From NCBI RefSeq assembly GCF_016680995.1, contig NZ_JAEQMG010000071.1:1-18430 (forward strand): DNA of 18,430 bases, in the 5' to 3' direction. How positions within the stretch are numbered: the stretch's first letter is position 1; each line of letters starts with the position of its first letter. This DNA is from Ruminococcus difficilis. Lineage in GTDB: Bacteria > Bacillota_A > Clostridia > Oscillospirales > Acutalibacteraceae. The translations under genes were made by a program, and so were the position numbers. The notes beneath the pieces were generated by a model. That model was not told the origin of the DNA, did not search any database, and saw nothing but the letters and a program-made list of their open reading frames with translations. Below, one piece after another: positions 5,926-18,430 of this stretch.

Positions 5926-7653
5926 TTAATCAGAATTGTTCTTCAAATAATAAATAACAGAATCGCCGTAAATCATCATCGCCTTCTCATAAGCAACAAG
6001 ATTATTCACATATTCCTTATCGCTATCGCTCAGAGAGCCGGGATTCTCCATCTGATTTTTTCTGATATAATACTCAGAAACGATACTGAAGCGTGTGGTG
6101 TTGCCGATCGGTTTTTTTTCGCTGTCCACAACCGTGAAATAAACCAAATCGCGCATTTGATTTGCTTTCAGATCCTTGTACATCACCGCATAATGATCGT
6201 TCTCACTCAGGAACTCCTCTGCGGGAATATATACGGGAACGCTGACCTCGTTGCCGTTACTGTCATAATGCAAAACTCTTACATATTTTCCCGCGGGATC
6301 GGCGATGTTAAAGTGGTATTTCATCGCGATGACGCTTCCGAGCACCAGCTGTATCCCCTTATACTCGGCTTCGGGATTATCAATTTTTCTGAATTTGTCG
6401 TCATTGACCTCTCTAATGTAGTCGTTTGTAACTTTTATTTTGGATTTCAGCTTGGCGTTTTCAACATTAACTATATTTGTCAAAGCTTTTATGTTTACAT
6501 ACGGACTCTTGCTCAGATCGCTGTTGATAAGTTCATCATCGTGATAGCCCTTGAAGGTCTGACCTGCCGAGCCGTAATTAAGAAGGTCAACAAAAATCGT
6601 ATACCATTTTTGGTTTTTGGAATCTGTCAGAGCTTTGTAAATATAGCTCTTGACGCCTTTAGTTTCGGTACGATAGTGGGGTATTCCATTGTCGTTTGCA
6701 GAAACAGTCACCTTATATTCATCATACATACGCTGAGGATTAACTCCCTCATAGACAAACTTGTAATATTCAACACCATCGACTGTTGCTTCGCTGTTCG
6801 TCAGATCTTTGTCCACAGTGCTGTAATCATCGGAATATTTAATATTCATACGCAAATCGGTCATATCTCCGACCGCAGCCTTTTTCACATAAAACGCCGT
6901 TTTGAGGTTGACCGTAAGCTCGAGATTCATGCTGATTTCGAGATTTTTGTCATTATCAACCACAGGTACATATTTTTCATTATACGGACCCGCGTAAGCA
7001 ACGGAATAGCTCTTATCAGTCACATATTCCACAGGCGAATTTTTTACAATCTGGCTCTTCGAAACAAGGTACACGGGATTGACCGTCGTCTCGCCGTCTT
7101 TGCGAAATCCCAAAGTTTTTATTTGCAGATTTACGTTCGTTTCACCTGAATTTTTTTTCACATTGAAGGTCACGGAAATAAACGCCGACTTCCCCTCACA
7201 AACGTCATATCCGTTTGTGTTGGTGCAGTTTGCCTTTATCGCTCCGATATTTCCCTCAGCAAAAGATGCCGGGTTAGTGTTAAAAATTATGCCCTTCGGT
7301 TCTCCTTTAACAAACGCGTTCTTTACAAATAAAGGTACCAGATTACCTCGATCATTCAGCTTTTCGTTAACATTCTTCGTATGGTCATACTCAAGATAAT
7401 CTCTGTCATAGGTCAGTGTGAACTCACAGTTGAGCATGCAATAATTCTTCGTATTGTACCAATATGTAACCGTAACCTGATTGGAACCGGAAGCGGAACT
7501 GATTTCCATGCTTGAACCCGGAAACAGCTCCGGAATGTTTGAGGTAGCGTTCACCGTAAGTATATTTTCCGCCGCTGACGCGCTGACAGCAAACAGAGAA
7601 ACAGACGAAAAAGCAAGAATCAGACATAATAAAACTGAAATACATTTCTTCAT
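5926..7653 (-). CDS. Secreted protein with N-terminal cohesin-like domain
   Basis: Exported protein of 575 residues. The signal peptide has MKK, a hydrophobic core and an ASASAA cleavage region near residue 27. Residues about 58-185 look like a cohesin-type beta-sandwich: NCEFTLTYDRDYLEYD (about 75-90), then a 'GIIFNTNP' strand and an 'AFISVTFNVKK' strand, as in cohesin families. This is pattern recognition, not a profile hit. Residues about 220-575 form one or more unassigned domains with YKFVYEGVNP and VDLLNYGSAGQTF. The latter is close to an 'LLNYGAAAQ' motif I recall from large secreted proteins of Ruminococcus relatives. No sortase motif, C-terminal anchor or dockerin is seen, so it is likely released or non-covalently bound. 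It is a monocistronic gene with its own promoter and terminator. GGGTGG precedes the ATG. Confidence 0.7.
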   Translation of the reverse strand: MKKCISVLLCLILAFSSVSLFAVSASAAENILTVNATSNIPELFPGSSMEISSASGSNQVTVTYWYNTKNYCMLNCEFTLTYDRDYLEYDHTKNVNEKLNDRGNLVPLFVKNAFVKGEPKGIIFNTNPASFAEGNIGAIKANCTNTNGYDVCEGKSAFISVTFNVKKNSGETNVNLQIKTLGFRKDGETTVNPVYLVSKSQIVKNSPVEYVTDKSYSVAYAGPYNEKYVPVVDNDKNLEISMNLELTVNLKTAFYVKKAAVGDMTDLRMNIKYSDDYSTVDKDLTNSEATVDGVEYYKFVYEGVNPQRMYDEYKVTVSANDNGIPHYRTETKGVKSYIYKALTDSKNQKWYTIFVDLLNYGSAGQTFKGYHDDELINSDLSKSPYVNIKALTNIVNVENAKLKSKIKVTNDYIREVNDDKFRKIDNPEAEYKGIQLVLGSVIAMKYHFNIADPAGKYVRVLHYDSNGNEVSVPVYIPAEEFLSENDHYAVMYKDLKANQMRDLVYFTVVDSEKKPIGNTTRFSIVSEYYIRKNQMENPGSLSDSDKEYVNNLVAYEKAMMIYGDSVIYYLKNNSD

Positions 7654-11328: not shown

Positions 11329-11357
11329 TTGACAACATTGATTTTTTCTGTTATCAT
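11329..11357 (+). promoter_or_regulatory. Promoter of the sigma factor-dockerin protein operon
   Basis: TTGACA (11329-11334), 17 nt, TATCAT (11352-11357): a housekeeping-type promoter about 95 nt before the sigma factor ATG, divergent from arsR. No GAAC-type ECF promoter was recognised here, so autoregulation by the ECF factor itself is not supported by this site. Confidence 0.7.
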
Positions 11358-11455
11358 AGATTCAGAAAAAATTTTAAAAAAACAGCAAACCTTTTCCGAA
11401 CTTCAGAGTCCTTTTTAATGAAAGGGGAAAATGAGAGGAAAGAGAAGGGATCAGC

Positions 11456-12346
11456 ATGAACAAACAGCCTAAATATAAAATAGATAACGCAAGGCTGTCG
11501 CGCTTGGTGGCAAAGGCGCAGAACGGCAGCCGCAAGGCGATGGAGGACGTCATCAATATGGTGAGCGGATATCTGTACTACTACAGCCTGACTTTGCTCG
11601 GCGACGAGGAACAGGCAAAGGATGCGGTGCAGGATATTTTGCTGACCATTCTCAAAAAGCTCGATACACTCGACGAACCGAAGGCTTTTCTGGGCTGGAT
11701 GAAAACGATTGCCGCGAACTACTGCAAAACAAAGCTCTCGCGCACAAAGGAGCATATCAGCATTGACGAGGACACATGGGAATTCGCTGATGAAAACGAC
11801 CAGATCTGTCCCGAGAAATCAGCGGAAACCGAGGAGGTCTGCGGTTATGTGAGAGAAGCGGTCAGAGCGCTGCCTCAGCTTTTGCGTGAAAGCGTGATGA
11901 TGTTTTACTTTAATCAGATGAGCGTAAAGCAGATCGCAGATATCCTTGAGGTCAACGAAAACACCGTGAAAAGCCGCCTGTACTCCGCGCGTCAGTCCAT
12001 GAAAAAATATCTGGAGCAATACGGCGGCGCGGCTCTCGCCTCCTGCGCGGTACCGCCCGTGTCCGTGATATCGTTCAGCCTGATCCAGGGCGCGGAAAGG
12101 CAAAAGAATATTCTGATCCCGTACGCGACACAGGCAGGCGAAATCAAGGTAGCGGCTATCAATTCCTCGTCAGCGTCCGCATCATTGCCTATAAAAGCGG
12201 CGGCTGTCGGAGCTGCGTGCCTAATCACCGCCGGCGGAATCGGCGCCGCTGTGATGTCAGGAAAATCGAACGCGGATATGCCGTCCGAGCTGTTCACCGC
12301 TCCTTCCTCGCATTCATGCATGATGACTCAGCCCTCAAGCGCATAG
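11456..12346 (+). CDS. ECF-like sigma factor with C-terminal transmembrane segment
   Basis: 296 residues up to a TAG. Region 2 spans about 15-95 (GYLYYYSLTLLGDEEQAKDA; FLGWMKTIAANYC). Region 4 spans about 130-187 with HTH (MSVKQIADILEVNENTVKSR). This is a sigma-70 family, ECF-type layout with no region 3. A ~55-residue linker follows, then one hydrophobic segment (about 246-267, PIKAAAVGAACLITAGG) and a Ser/Pro-rich tail. Topology is N-in, so the DNA-binding part would be held at the membrane and the tail lies outside. The same frame continues after TAG 12344-12346 for 186 codons (see next entry), so the native protein was probably 483 residues. The ATG has AAGGG upstream. Release by proteolysis, as for other membrane-held regulators, is an inference. 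Confidence 0.88.
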   Translation: MNKQPKYKIDNARLSRLVAKAQNGSRKAMEDVINMVSGYLYYYSLTLLGDEEQAKDAVQDILLTILKKLDTLDEPKAFLGWMKTIAANYCKTKLSRTKEHISIDEDTWEFADENDQICPEKSAETEEVCGYVREAVRALPQLLRESVMMFYFNQMSVKQIADILEVNENTVKSRLYSARQSMKKYLEQYGGAALASCAVPPVSVISFSLIQGAERQKNILIPYATQAGEIKVAAINSSSASASLPIKAAAVGAACLITAGGIGAAVMSGKSNADMPSELFTAPSSHSCMMTQPSSA

Positions 12347-12907
12347 CCGACCGAACCGACCGCCGCACAAACAACCGCTCAGACCGTTCCCGTCAGCCGC
12401 ACCGTGACTGACAGCACGGAAGCCGGCACTCAGCAATCACAGGAGAATATCGCGGAAACAACCGTCTATTCCGAAAACGCGACTCAGGCACCGTCAACTC
12501 AGGCGCCGTCTACGGCTGAGCAAAGCGATACGCCGCTCTATTCGCAAATCATCAGAATTCAGGTCGCGGAAGATACATTCAGCGATTTTGACAGAATGTA
12601 CTGCTTCCTCACGGACAAAACCGCGGATACCGTTTTGGCGGCCTGGGGCTCGATAAAGGGAACCATGTCCAAGATCGAAAACACGGACACCTGGAGCATT
12701 TCTCTTGCCAGACAGAATATCACGCTGTATTCAGGACACAGATACAGCGTCGTATTTACGAGCGATTGGAGCACGCAGACAGATGTGCTTGAATTCACCG
12801 CCTCGGGCAACACCAGAGAGCATGTCGCTGTGTACACCGGCGAATCCACCCCTATCAGTTATACCGCCAACACTTATTCATATAAGTATAAGTGGCTCGG
12901 AGAATAA
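12347..12907 (+). pseudogene. Ectodomain continuation of the sigma factor after an in-frame TAG
   Basis: Same reading frame as the sigma gene, directly after its TAG. It opens with a Ser/Thr/Pro/Gln-rich linker (PTEPTAAQTTAQTVPVS onward, about 65 residues), then a ~118-residue domain ending in YKYKWLGE. That domain aligns along its length with residues 36-151 of the next gene's product (shared MYCF, W..KG.M, H.Y.VVF, QT..L, YKYKWLGE). The only internal start is a GTG at 12404 inside the linker, without a ribosome site or signal peptide, so independent translation is unlikely. The best reading is one gene interrupted by a nonsense codon (for example CAG to TAG), a sequence error, or readthrough. 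Confidence 0.75.
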
Positions 12908-12946
12908 GAGAACGGACGAAGATTTAATAAGAAAGGGTGCTTTTTT

Positions 12947-13912
12947 ATGAAACCAGCAATGAAAAAATGCTTAACCGCTGTACTAGCCGCGACTGTGTCG
13001 GTTTCCGTTTTCAGCGTTCCGGCAAACGCAGTCGAACCTGCCGCCCATGTACTCAGCATTGATATTGACAGCGATACCTTCAGGGACGTCAGGCAGATGT
13101 ACTGCTTTATCACGGACGAAACCGACAGCTCCGAAATCGTGAAATGGGGCGCCAAAAAAGGCGCAATGACAAAGGACGCGAATACCGATGTGTGGCGTTA
13201 CGACCTTGACGGACACGGCATCACCTTGGATCCCGCACACTCATACACCGTTGTTTTCTCTGACAACTGGATCATTCAAACTGAGGACCTCACCATCGCA
13301 GATTATGACAGCGAAAAGGAATACACCGCCGTTTTCTCGGAAATCTTCACAATGAAATCCTTCTATTCCAAGCCTGTGTACAAATACAAGTGGCTCGGCG
13401 AGAACGAGAAACAAGCCGGAGCAGATGTTTTCAGCGTCCGCGCCGATAAGGGCGCCTACGGAAGTGACCGCACACTGACCTGTCAGGTCTATGACGAAAC
13501 CGCTGAAGCCTACGTCTTGTGGTGCGGCAGAATGACCCTGGACGAAAACGCCCAGATCTGGAGCTTTGATTTCGGCAGGCACGGCATCGCGCTCGAACCC
13601 GGACACACCTATACCGTCACGTTTGGCAATGCTGAACCTCTGACAATCGATTCCTACGATCGAAGCAAGGACTACACCGACGTATTTTCTGAAGCAATAG
13701 GTAAAGATGATATCCTGTTTGGTGACGCGAACGGCGACGGTGAGGTAAATATTACCGACGTGACATTTATTCAGCTGCATCTTGCGGAACGTATCACCCT
13801 GGAAGGCGACTGCCTAACGGCCGCCGACGCAAACGGCGACGGTGAAGTAACCGTTGACGACGCTACGCAGATTCAAAAATATCTCGCCGATGAAATTGAC
13901 TGTTTAGGATAG
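12947..13912 (+). CDS. Secreted dockerin protein with two sigma-ectodomain-like modules
   Basis: Exported protein of 321 residues. Signal peptide with cleavage near VPANA (residue 28). Module 1 (about 36-151) is closely related to the sigma factor ectodomain just upstream. Module 2 (about 160-250) is a diverged copy (H.YTV.F, DYTDVFSEA shared) that lacks the QT motif. A type I dockerin (about 257-318) has two Ca-binding loops, GDANGDGEVNITD and ADANGDGEVTVDD. Loop positions 10-11 are IT and VD, so the two halves are not symmetric. No catalytic motif is recognised; a binding or scaffold-attached role is likely. The modules recall CBM25/26 starch-binding domains in spacing (inference only). It lies 39 nt after the ectodomain, with AAAGGGTG before the ATG, so cotranscribed. 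Stop is TAG, showing TAG is a normal stop here. Confidence 0.85.
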   Translation: MKPAMKKCLTAVLAATVSVSVFSVPANAVEPAAHVLSIDIDSDTFRDVRQMYCFITDETDSSEIVKWGAKKGAMTKDANTDVWRYDLDGHGITLDPAHSYTVVFSDNWIIQTEDLTIADYDSEKEYTAVFSEIFTMKSFYSKPVYKYKWLGENEKQAGADVFSVRADKGAYGSDRTLTCQVYDETAEAYVLWCGRMTLDENAQIWSFDFGRHGIALEPGHTYTVTFGNAEPLTIDSYDRSKDYTDVFSEAIGKDDILFGDANGDGEVNITDVTFIQLHLAERITLEGDCLTAADANGDGEVTVDDATQIQKYLADEIDCLG

Positions 13913-16527: not shown

Positions 16528-16593
16528 GACTTTTTTCGTCAAACGCAAACATTTCTTTTGGCAATTATTCATTAAGATAACCCACATTATATG

Positions 16594-16622
16594 TTGAATT
16601 TTAGTCGTTTTTCGTGTATCAT
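16594..16622 (+). promoter_or_regulatory. Promoter of the GGDEF-EAL gene
   Basis: TTGAAT (16594-16599), 17 nt, TATCAT (16617-16622), about 30 nt before the ATG. Divergent from guaA. Confidence 0.6.
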
Positions 16623-16659
16623 TATTATACAGCTTAGTATGCAAAAAGGAGGTGAGGAA

Positions 16660-17946
16660 ATGATCCATTGGCTCAGTGATTACAACTACGACTTTGCGCT
16701 CGCGTCAATACCCGTTCAGCTGCTGATCATTTTGTTCTACAGCTTCAGGCGCAACCTGCCGATCCGTTCGAGCCACTGTTTTCTGGCGGTCATGATCTCA
16801 AATCTGACCATGACGCTCGCGGATATCGTGTCCTGCGAGATGAACGAGGTCTGGACGAGCTTTCCGATGTGGATCATGTACGCGATAAATATGCTGTATT
16901 TCCTCCCCTTCCTGATACGAGGCTGGGCGCTGTTCGCGTACACCTCAGAAGTCTGCGGAGCGTTCCGCAAGCTCGGGCGATGGTTCCGCATCGTCACACT
17001 TATACCCGTATCCGTCGGCGTGTTTCTGACTCTCTCCACTCCGTGGACGTCGGCGATATTCACGATCAACCCCGAAACAGGCTATCACAACTGCGCGCTC
17101 TACCAGACGATTTATTTCAGCACATACTTTTACATAGGCGCGTCCTTCGTTTCTCTTATCGTCGGCTGGAAGGGGCTTCGCAAGCGCAACCGCGTAGGTC
17201 TGTTCTCCTGCAACACAGCGCTTCTGCTCGGCATTATCTTCCGCAAGCTGTTTATCAACACGCTCGTGACGAGCTATTTCAGCATCATCGTTATCCTGAT
17301 CATATTCTTCTCGGCGGAAAACCCCGACCTCTTCTATGACCGCCGCATAGGGCTGTTCAACAAATACGCCTTCGCCCTGATATGCGACGACTTCTTGGAA
17401 AAGAACATTCCCGTCAGCGCGATAATGGTAAGCGCTCATGACTTCGACACGGCAAAGCACCTCTACGGCGCGAATCAGATTCAACGCCAGCTTGAGCTTG
17501 TCAGCAAGCGTATCAAGGGCATCACGCCGAAAACAAATATATTTTATCTCGGCGGCGGTCGCTTTATTATTCTCAGCCGCGAGAATGCCGACACTCCCGA
17601 GCTTACCGCCCGTAAATGGAAACGGCAATTTGAGCGGCAGCTAAAGCTCAGCAACGAGACTGTTCCGATGACATTTACGGTTATGCTTATCCCCTTCGAT
17701 ATCCTGAAGCGCGAGATCGAGCGGATCGAGGAGCTCATAAACTTCGCGTCAGGCAGAAGCTACCACGAAAACCAGCGCGGTAACTACGCGATCACTGAAG
17801 CGATCCTCAGTAAGCTGCAGCGCGAAAAGGACATTGAGGCAGCACTCAAAAAAGCCCTTGAGCAGCACCGCGTTGAAGTATTCTTCCAGCCCATCTACTC
17901 CACCGGAGCCGACCGCGTTGTCGGTGCGGAAGCTCTGCCCGTCTGA
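16660..17946 (+). CDS. 7-TM protein with degenerate GGDEF domain and start of EAL domain (frameshifted)
   Basis: 428 residues before a premature stop. About seven hydrophobic segments lie between residues 12 and 218, then a GGDEF-like domain (about 226-375: DRRIGLFNKYAFAL, then YLGGGRFIIL). The signature reads GGGRF instead of GGDEF, so diguanylate cyclase activity is probably lost and the domain may be regulatory. The EAL domain begins at about residue 390 (VEVFFQPIYSTGADRVVGAEAL). The frame then breaks: PV-stop replaces the expected A-R-L, consistent with loss of one G near 17938. The start at 16660 has a near-perfect AAGGAGGTG 6 nt upstream; the in-frame ATG at 16591 lies in the promoter. 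Role: membrane sensor controlling c-di-GMP. Confidence 0.85.
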   Translation: MIHWLSDYNYDFALASIPVQLLIILFYSFRRNLPIRSSHCFLAVMISNLTMTLADIVSCEMNEVWTSFPMWIMYAINMLYFLPFLIRGWALFAYTSEVCGAFRKLGRWFRIVTLIPVSVGVFLTLSTPWTSAIFTINPETGYHNCALYQTIYFSTYFYIGASFVSLIVGWKGLRKRNRVGLFSCNTALLLGIIFRKLFINTLVTSYFSIIVILIIFFSAENPDLFYDRRIGLFNKYAFALICDDFLEKNIPVSAIMVSAHDFDTAKHLYGANQIQRQLELVSKRIKGITPKTNIFYLGGGRFIILSRENADTPELTARKWKRQFERQLKLSNETVPMTFTVMLIPFDILKREIERIEELINFASGRSYHENQRGNYAITEAILSKLQREKDIEAALKKALEQHRVEVFFQPIYSTGADRVVGAEALPV

Positions 17947-18430
17947 ATGACGACAACATGGGATATATCCCGCCGAACGAATTTATCCGAGTCGCCGAAC
18001 GCAACGGAGATATCACGGAGCTCGGAAGGCAGATTTTTGACCGCGTGTGCCGGTTTGTCAACAATGAGAAGGTTGTCAATCAGGGCATCGAGTTCATCAA
18101 CATAAACCTCTCGCCCGCCCAGTGTCTTGACGACGACCTCGCCGCCGATTTGTCGGGCATCGCGTTCAAGCACGGCGTGCCGATGAATATGTTCGACTTT
18201 GAGATCACAGAATCCTTCATCGACGACCATCAGGCGATCGTCAACCAGATGACGCGCCTGCAGGCAAGCGGTGCGGAGCTGTCGCTCGACGACTTCGGCA
18301 CAGGTACCTCGAATATCGCGCAGCTCCTCAAGCTGCCGATCCACGTTGTAAAGCTCGATATGTCGGTCGTGCACTCCTACTTCAAGGGAGAGTCAAAACT
18401 GCTGCCCGACCTGATCCAGATGTTCAGAAA
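17940..18430 (+). pseudogene. EAL domain continuation after a one-base frameshift (runs off the window)
   Basis: In the shifted frame the coding resumes at once: RLNDDNMGYIPPNEFIRVAE, NINLSPAQ, FDFEITESF, LDDFGTGTSNIAQLL and VVKLD. These are the conserved EAL phosphodiesterase motifs, including the metal-binding Asn, Glu and Asp-Asp pair, so the domain itself seems catalytically competent for c-di-GMP hydrolysis. There is no ribosome site before the first in-frame ATG (17958). It is therefore the second half of the preceding gene, not a separate one. The 3' end lies beyond the window. Confidence 0.85.

What the first reader, a model, noticed from the sequence alone, without database searches (positions are those of the whole stretch)
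11456..13912. Membrane-tethered sigma factor whose ectodomain matches the secreted dockerin protein encoded next to it
Seen: the sigma frame runs through regions 2 and 4, a TM segment, an extracellular-type linker and a ~118-residue domain. That domain is homologous to module 1 of the downstream secreted dockerin protein, with the same YKYKWLGE end. Known: in Clostridium thermocellum, SigI/RsgI pairs sense polysaccharide through ectodomains that mirror modules on cellulosomal proteins, but the sensor there is the anti-sigma, not the sigma. Inference: a one-protein version, in which sigma factor, anchor and sensor are fused and control a scaffold-bound protein carrying the same ligand-binding module. 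The secreted copy could compete for ligand with the sensor.
Basis: partly seen in the sequence, partly recalled or inferred. Interest (0 to 1): 0.87.

Follow-up and report, generated by a model that had tools for sequence, protein, structure and literature searches.

The report
Starch-sensing sigma factor, here stop-split
A rumen bacterium carries a gene switch (sigma factor) that in related copies is joined through the membrane to a starch-binding-type module like that of the secreted protein encoded next to it, which it probably controls; in this copy a stop codon cuts the switch off from its sensor.

The parts
11329..11357 (+). possible housekeeping promoter TTGACA-17-TATCAT
   Evidence: 11 of 12 consensus bases in a script scan; consensus match only
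11386..11413 (+). ECF-type promoter CAAACC-N16-GTCCTT, 42 nt before the sigma ATG
   Evidence: same element at the sigma gene in 9 of 9 genomes with an orthologue
11456..12346 (+). sigma-TM ORF, 296 aa, ends at TAG
11567..11749 (+). sigma region 2 (residues 38-98)
   Evidence: PF04542, 38.9 bits over cut-off 24
11846..12001 (+). sigma region 4 (residues 131-182)
   Evidence: PF08281, 50.8 bits over cut-off 25.7
12197..12262 (+). putative TM (about residues 248-269)
   Evidence: hydropathy peak only; aligned in the orthologues
12344..12346 (+). in-frame TAG between TM tail and linker
   Evidence: shared with G001
12347..12541 (+). Thr/Pro-rich linker after the stop, same frame
12542..12904 (+). 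ectodomain module, Sas20-domain-1/CBM26-like fold
   Evidence: modelled as 12527-12904
12947..13912 (+). secreted dockerin protein, 321 aa, with two modules
13040..13402 (+). dockerin-protein module 1, 40% identical to the ectodomain
13403..13708 (+). dockerin-protein module 2
13721..13885 (+). type I dockerin (residues 259-313)
   Evidence: PF00404, 44.9 bits over cut-off 22.9

Best explanation
The locus is an operon of a one-component ECF-type sigma system. In its intact form a cytoplasmic sigma region 2/4 unit is joined by a conserved juxtamembrane stretch and one TM to a Thr/Pro-rich stalk and a starch-binding-type module outside the cell. Alpha-glucan outside is bound by the module and the sigma unit is released, most likely by regulated proteolysis (inferred from ECF52, IutY and RsgI). 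The freed sigma transcribes its own operon and, where the genes are not neighbours, separate dockerin genes from CAAACC-N16-GTC(C/T)TT promoters, so that sensor and scaffold-bound starch-binding protein rise together. In this window and in G001 a TAG removes stalk and sensor. The remaining sigma-TM protein, with about 27 residues outside, should be blind to the ligand; I expect it to be processed constitutively, because a short outside tail resembles the product of a first cleavage. Shown by computation: architecture, fold, promoter sharing, stop. Inferred: ligand, proteolysis, transcription, effect of the stop.
For: Unbroken sigma-TM-module frames in 8 of 8 other genomes with a close orthologue and full-length species-level alleles. 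Sas20 domain 1 as best profile and fold match. ECF-type promoter at the sigma gene in 9 of 9 genomes. Ten strict sites in the list of 161 genomes: 7 sigma genes, 2 dockerin genes (G041:C185, G121:C60), 1 other (G067). Two-module dockerin genes of G022 and G025, which have no sigma match, lack the site. Sensor exchanges towards dockerin-protein-type modules. RsgI_N in only 8 of 161 genus genomes, 6 over the cut-off.
Against: The window's copy is split. Of the 5 genomes where sigma and dockerin are not neighbours, 3 (G103, G114, G088) gave no dockerin gene with the site. The looser pattern occurs in 59 of 161 genomes, and with 2 mismatches sites are no more common than in the reversed control (48 against 44). 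The Y60 equivalent is T in the window's ectodomain, and G148, G085 and G041 ectodomains lack an aromatic at W72. No transcript, binding or protease data.
Confidence: 0.6

Rival explanations
1. The fused sigma is real, but its ectodomain resembles the neighbour only because adjacent homologous modules recombine easily; the sigma senses something else, or uses the module merely to hold on to substrate, and the likeness carries no regulatory meaning.
For: The neighbouring modules are homologous and the window-G001 differences cluster in the module (10 of 186 post-stop codons against 4 of 296 and 3 of 321). Dockerin-type ectodomains in this group occur only where the dockerin gene is next door. 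Binding-site residues are not uniformly kept.
Against: The same promoter form lies before dockerin genes that are on other contigs than the sigma gene in G041 and G121. The older sensors belong to the same broad module family.
Confidence: 0.25
2. The TAG is regularly read through, so that the window still makes some full-length sensor.
For: The post-stop frame is open to its natural end and its changes against G001 are mostly synonymous (7 of 10 changed codons, p 0.0037). No good independent start or signal peptide was seen for it.
Against: The excess of synonymous changes can come from recombination with full-length copies (denser changes there). TAG also ends the dockerin gene in this window (2 of 19 listed ORF ends), and no recoding element was sought.
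Confidence: 0.12
3. The truncated allele is decay: without its sensor the sigma protein is useless (locked at the membrane) and is being lost in part of the population.
For: Three single-sequence truncated copies, P0005-P0007, also lack internal stretches near region 4 or the juxtamembrane part.
Against: The sigma unit is intact in window and G001; the truncated cluster P0004 stands for 71 member sequences (clusters are at 90% identity, so not all need carry the stop). P0005-P0007 may be assembly artefacts.
Confidence: 0.25

Closest known systems
ECF52 sigma factors (SCO4117, Streptomyces coelicolor)
   Same: Sigma unit, TM, proline-rich stalk and outside carbohydrate-binding module in one protein; release by proteolysis proposed (passages of PMC5826349 and PMC8999054). 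An S. clavuligerus orthologue also has a stop in the stalk, which its authors suspect to be a sequence error.
   Different: ECF52 has a zinc finger and is reported from Actinobacteria only; no zinc finger was found in the 9 proteins scanned here; the module is of another family (smart00776 there, Sas20/CBM26-like here); here the neighbour carries the same module and a dockerin.
SigI/RsgI of Clostridium thermocellum
   Same: Works like it: polysaccharide-type module outside, sigma control of scaffold-bound proteins.
   Different: There two proteins, with the sensor on the anti-sigma; here sigma and sensor are one protein, no RsgI_N domain was found in the 9 proteins scanned, and RsgI_N is found in 8 of 161 genus genomes.
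IutY (ECF243, Pseudomonas putida)
   Same: A sigma factor fused to a membrane-bound regulatory part and freed by proteolysis (passage of PMC8999054).
   Different: Iron and siderophore signalling; no carbohydrate module mentioned in the passage seen.
Sas20 domain 1 of the Ruminococcus bromii amylosome (7RFT, 7RAW)
   Same: Same module family and fold as the ectodomain; Sas20 is a dockerin protein (PMC9112005: abstract, sections 5 and 12, passages).
   Different: No link to a sigma factor in the parts read; the window's modules lack the helical bundle and the loop-A residues that touch the sugar.

Membership tests
ECF sigma factors | regions 2 and 4 as the only promoter-binding domains | tested here: met
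   PF04542 and PF08281 in 9 of 9 proteins scanned; TIGR02937 74.2 bits over cut-off 42.9
ECF sigma factors | AAC / CGT type promoter and positive autoregulation | tested here: inconclusive
   CAAACC-N16-GTC upstream of the sigma gene in 9 of 9 genomes, but the base before GT varies and no transcript data exist; feature from PMC8103513 passages
ECF sigma factors | co-transcribed cognate anti-sigma factor | tested here: inconclusive
   no anti-sigma domain in the 9 sigma proteins at E 0.01; the gene that follows is a dockerin protein; not all neighbours were scanned
ECF52 | zinc-finger domain between region 4 and TM | tested here: not met
   no zinc-finger family among the Pfam matches of 9 proteins at E 0.01 or of the window ORF at E 0.1
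ECF52 | TM plus stalk plus carbohydrate-binding domain | tested here: met
   in the orthologues and full-length alleles, with another module family; in the window only across the stop
SigI/RsgI | RsgI_N anti-sigma domain on the sensor protein | tested here: not met
   no PF12791 among the matches of 9 proteins; none found in G001, G105, G148 or G085
SigI/RsgI | sigma and sensor as separate proteins | tested here: not met
   one frame in 8 of 8 orthologues; the window's split is by a stop inside that frame
Sas20 domain 1 / CBM26-like module | sequence profile and fold | tested here: met
Sas20 domain 1 / CBM26-like module | Y60/W72 aromatic platform and Q127 | tested here: inconclusive
   window ectodomain T/W/Q; aromatic at W72 in 8 of 11 and at Y60 in 7 of 11 sigma ectodomains
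Sas20 domain 1 / CBM26-like module | binding of alpha-glucan | not testable with these tools
   needs purified protein
Type I dockerin protein | dockerin domain over the curated cut-off, in a genome with cohesins | tested here: met
   44.9 bits over 22.9; cohesins over the cut-off in 9 of 9 genomes with this sigma (the window's own genome is not held)

The most novel reading that the evidence does not exclude
A one-component sigma switch whose outside sensor has repeatedly been re-cut from the type of module it controls: sensor and controlled dockerin protein share promoter and starch-binding module, so that secreted copies bind the sensor's own ligand and close a feedback loop. Such fused sigma sensors may be the general way in which Ruminococcus, which mostly lacks RsgI, reads polysaccharides for its scaffold system, and the stop allele would be a natural always-on or always-off variant of it.
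Probability: 0.35. Interest if true: 0.82.

Novelty: new variant of a known kind. Interest (0 to 1): 0.68.

Why it matters
How Ruminococcus tunes its amylosome and cellulosome genes seems open: a 2024 survey assigns RsgI sensor suites only to Acetivibrio-type systems (PMC11557425, passages), and my open-access searches listed no starch-module sigma factor in Ruminococcus. This locus offers a candidate sensor, a candidate promoter and a short target list that can be tested directly, and a natural sensor-less allele as a ready-made control. The module exchanges, if functional, show how a sensor can be re-aimed by copying from a neighbour.

Tried and rejected
An artefact of one assembly as the source of the TAG: rejected, because G001 and the proteins P0004-P0007 share the truncated end.

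Membership in ECF52 and in SigI/RsgI: rejected (Membership tests).

A wide regulon: not found. With 2 mismatches (48 sites against 44 in the reversed control) I examined 31 of the 48 sites (30 loci, plus G121:C82); beyond the sigma genes and the two dockerin genes with exact sites only G121:C82 precedes a dockerin gene, with a changed -10. With other spacings (24 sites, all examined) nothing was added. Two-module dockerin genes in G022 and G025, without a sigma match, lack the site.

One exchange against two: a clade of the window, G148 and G085 ectodomains is not rejected (AU p 0.097); two events rest on the sigma tree, where the window joins G105 (95/92). The window's ectodomain as sister of its own neighbour's module 1 is neither supported nor rejected (p 0.286). 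The bootstrap of the module tree had not fully settled.

The dockerin module was not modelled on its own.

Searches without use: single ectodomain and dockerin modules against PDB sequences by phmmer, ORF 5926-7653 against PADLOC and PDB.

Full report
WHAT THE SEQUENCE HOLDS. The sigma frame opens at 11456 and ends at a TAG at 12344-12346 after 296 aa. It has sigma region 2 (E 7.6e-10) and region 4 (E 1.3e-13) and a hydropathy peak near residue 249 (no TM predictor was run). After the stop, in the same frame, come a Thr/Pro-rich linker and a module of about 120 residues ending YKYKWLGE (12347-12904). The next gene, 12947-13912, has a signal-like N-terminus, two modules and a type I dockerin (E 1.3e-11). 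Ectodomain and dockerin module 1 are 40% identical over 121 aa. The homology is far above chance; the single continuous protein is not in this window.

THE STOP. The window's own genome is not held; the nearest, G001, is a 1.9 Mb assembly, 89% complete. Its locus is identical at 2923 of 2943 bases and has the same TAG. A contig of the same length and region appears as L116 (isolate RUG202), so I take G001 to be that record. A protein search with the 296-aa ORF gave 43 proteins at E 1e-80 or better. P0003 (483 aa, 97% identity, 236 member sequences) and P0002 (454 aa, 98%) run through to the same YKYKWLGE end; P0004 (71 members) and P0005-P0007 (one each) stop at the same truncated end. Members are grouped at 90% identity, so these are not allele frequencies. 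Close orthologues in G105, G148, G085, G103, G121, G041, G114 and G088 (8 of 8) are unbroken frames of 484-585 aa. The TAG is therefore a derived nonsense allele. Between window and G001 the post-stop part has 7 synonymous and 3 non-synonymous changed codons (p 0.0037 against neutral), but it is also denser in changes than its flanks (10 of 186 codons against 4 of 296 and 3 of 321), so recombination with full-length copies may explain both.

HOW COMMON THE FUSION IS. In one search, 80 of 161 genus genomes had a sigma match at E 1e-15 or better, short ordinary sigma factors included. Of the listed places I fetched 60 loci, mostly the best-ranked ones with long frames. They gave 57 sigma ORFs of at least 330 aa; with the window's post-stop part, 58 ectodomains were compared with 786 ORFs. 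A non-sigma ORF of the same locus matched in 8 of 58 (window, L056, L057, L081, L085, L103, L100, L091), next door in the first six. L081, L085 and L103 are another sigma type whose neighbour is a TM protein with the same ectodomain. Related loci inflate such counts, and 101 matches were to ORFs of other loci. For the present group the dockerin neighbour is found in 4 of 9 genomes (G001, G105, G148, G085), in three different surroundings as judged from ORF lists; in G085 that ORF has lost its signal peptide.

THE SENSOR HAS BEEN EXCHANGED. On a tree of 42 modules the four ectodomains of the paired genomes are not one clade (AU p 0.00028). The window's lies in a set of 15 with the dockerin-protein modules (100/99); those of G148 and G085 lie among second modules of such proteins (98/85); G105's lies with older-type sensors (99/98). 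Placing the window's, or G148's and G085's, with the older type is rejected (p 0.002 and 0.0015). The sigma tree joins the window with G105 (95/92) and G148 with G085 (100/99). The simplest history has two exchanges; a single capture is not excluded by the module tree (p 0.097).

THE PROMOTER. Upstream of the sigma start lies CAAACC-N16-GTC(C/T)TT (window 11386-11413). It is found at the sigma gene in 9 of 9 genomes with an orthologue. ECF sigma factors typically use AAC at -35 and CGT at -10 and are often autoregulated (PMC8103513, passages). The pattern at large is not rare: 59 of 161 genomes have at least one match. Its strict form, CAAACCTTTT-N12-GTCYTT, accounts for 10 of the matches listed there: 7 sigma genes; G041:C185, 35 nt before a gene for a secreted Sas20-type module plus dockerin; G121:C60, 46 nt before a gene for a small secreted dockerin protein; and one in G067, from which a long open frame runs on. 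In G041 and G121 these genes lie on other contigs than the sigma gene. A further dockerin gene, G121:C82, has a site with a changed -10. Allowing two mismatches gives 48 sites against 44 in the reversed control, so weak sites carry no weight. In G103, G114 and G088 no dockerin gene with the site was found. G022 and G025, without a sigma match but with two-module dockerin genes, have no such site. In window, G105 and G148 the dockerin gene follows the sigma stop, or the post-stop frame, by a short gap (39 nt in the window, 7 and 18 nt in the others) and probably shares its transcript.

MECHANISM. Best reading: alpha-glucan outside is bound by the sensor; the sigma unit is released, probably by proteolysis, as proposed for ECF52 and reported for IutY and RsgI (passages); sigma then raises its own operon and the dockerin protein that carries the same module family. 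Secreted copies would compete for the ligand; that is inference. The truncated allele leaves a short outside tail. I predict ligand-blind, constitutive release; a locked-off protein, decay or some readthrough are rivals.

COMPARISON. It works like SigI/RsgI but is not a member: RsgI_N is not among the matches of the sigma proteins and occurs in 8 of 161 genus genomes. It resembles ECF52 but lacks the zinc finger and is not actinobacterial. One ECF52 orthologue, in S. clavuligerus, also has a stop in the proline-rich stalk, which its authors suspect to be a sequence error (PMC5826349, passage).

PAPERS. Seen: outline, abstract, sections 5 and 12 and passages of PMC9112005; passages of PMC8999054, PMC5826349, PMC11557425, PMC5814915, PMC12203970 and PMC8103513; listings only for all others. 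Pinto et al. 2019 on one-component sigma factors was seen only as a reference title. That nothing like this is in print rests on the open-access searches only.

Noticed in passing
window 5926-7653 (-); L054 4233-5198: A secreted 575-aa protein without Pfam match whose G001 counterpart gives a sub-threshold cohesin match (19.9 bits, cut-off 24.1), about window 7051-7476; the G001 frame is only 321 aa. Possibly a divergent cohesin protein 4 kb from the sigma gene.
   Followed up: partly
L081 1846-4924, L085 711-3783, L103 2021-5108: Another fused sigma type: sigma-TM-ectodomain gene beside a TM protein that carries the same ectodomain without a sigma part. A sigma-less twin next door may be a recurring design.
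   Followed up: partly
L057 10520-11020: In G085 the dockerin gene next to the sigma gene has lost its signal peptide and the first module strand, joined close behind the sigma stop; deletion or assembly fault.
   Followed up: no
L079 699-2354, L092 8118-9872, L080 8189-9871: Fused sigma proteins whose outside parts end in short aromatic/charged repeats (KEAWSEK- or YYKTE-like) of unknown role (ends; not searched).
   Followed up: no
window 16591-18428 (+): A protein that looks like a GGDEF/EAL type (named from the sequence, not searched) is in two frames: 16591-17946, then 17958 onward; probably frameshifted here.
   Followed up: no
L058, L095, L174: Sigma ectodomains that seem to keep the helical part behind the beta-sandwich, as in Sas20 domain 1, so closer to the full starch-end-binding domain than the window's.
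   Followed up: partly
P0005, P0006, P0007: Truncated copies of the sigma protein that also lack internal stretches, single sequences each; decay or assembly artefact.
   Followed up: no
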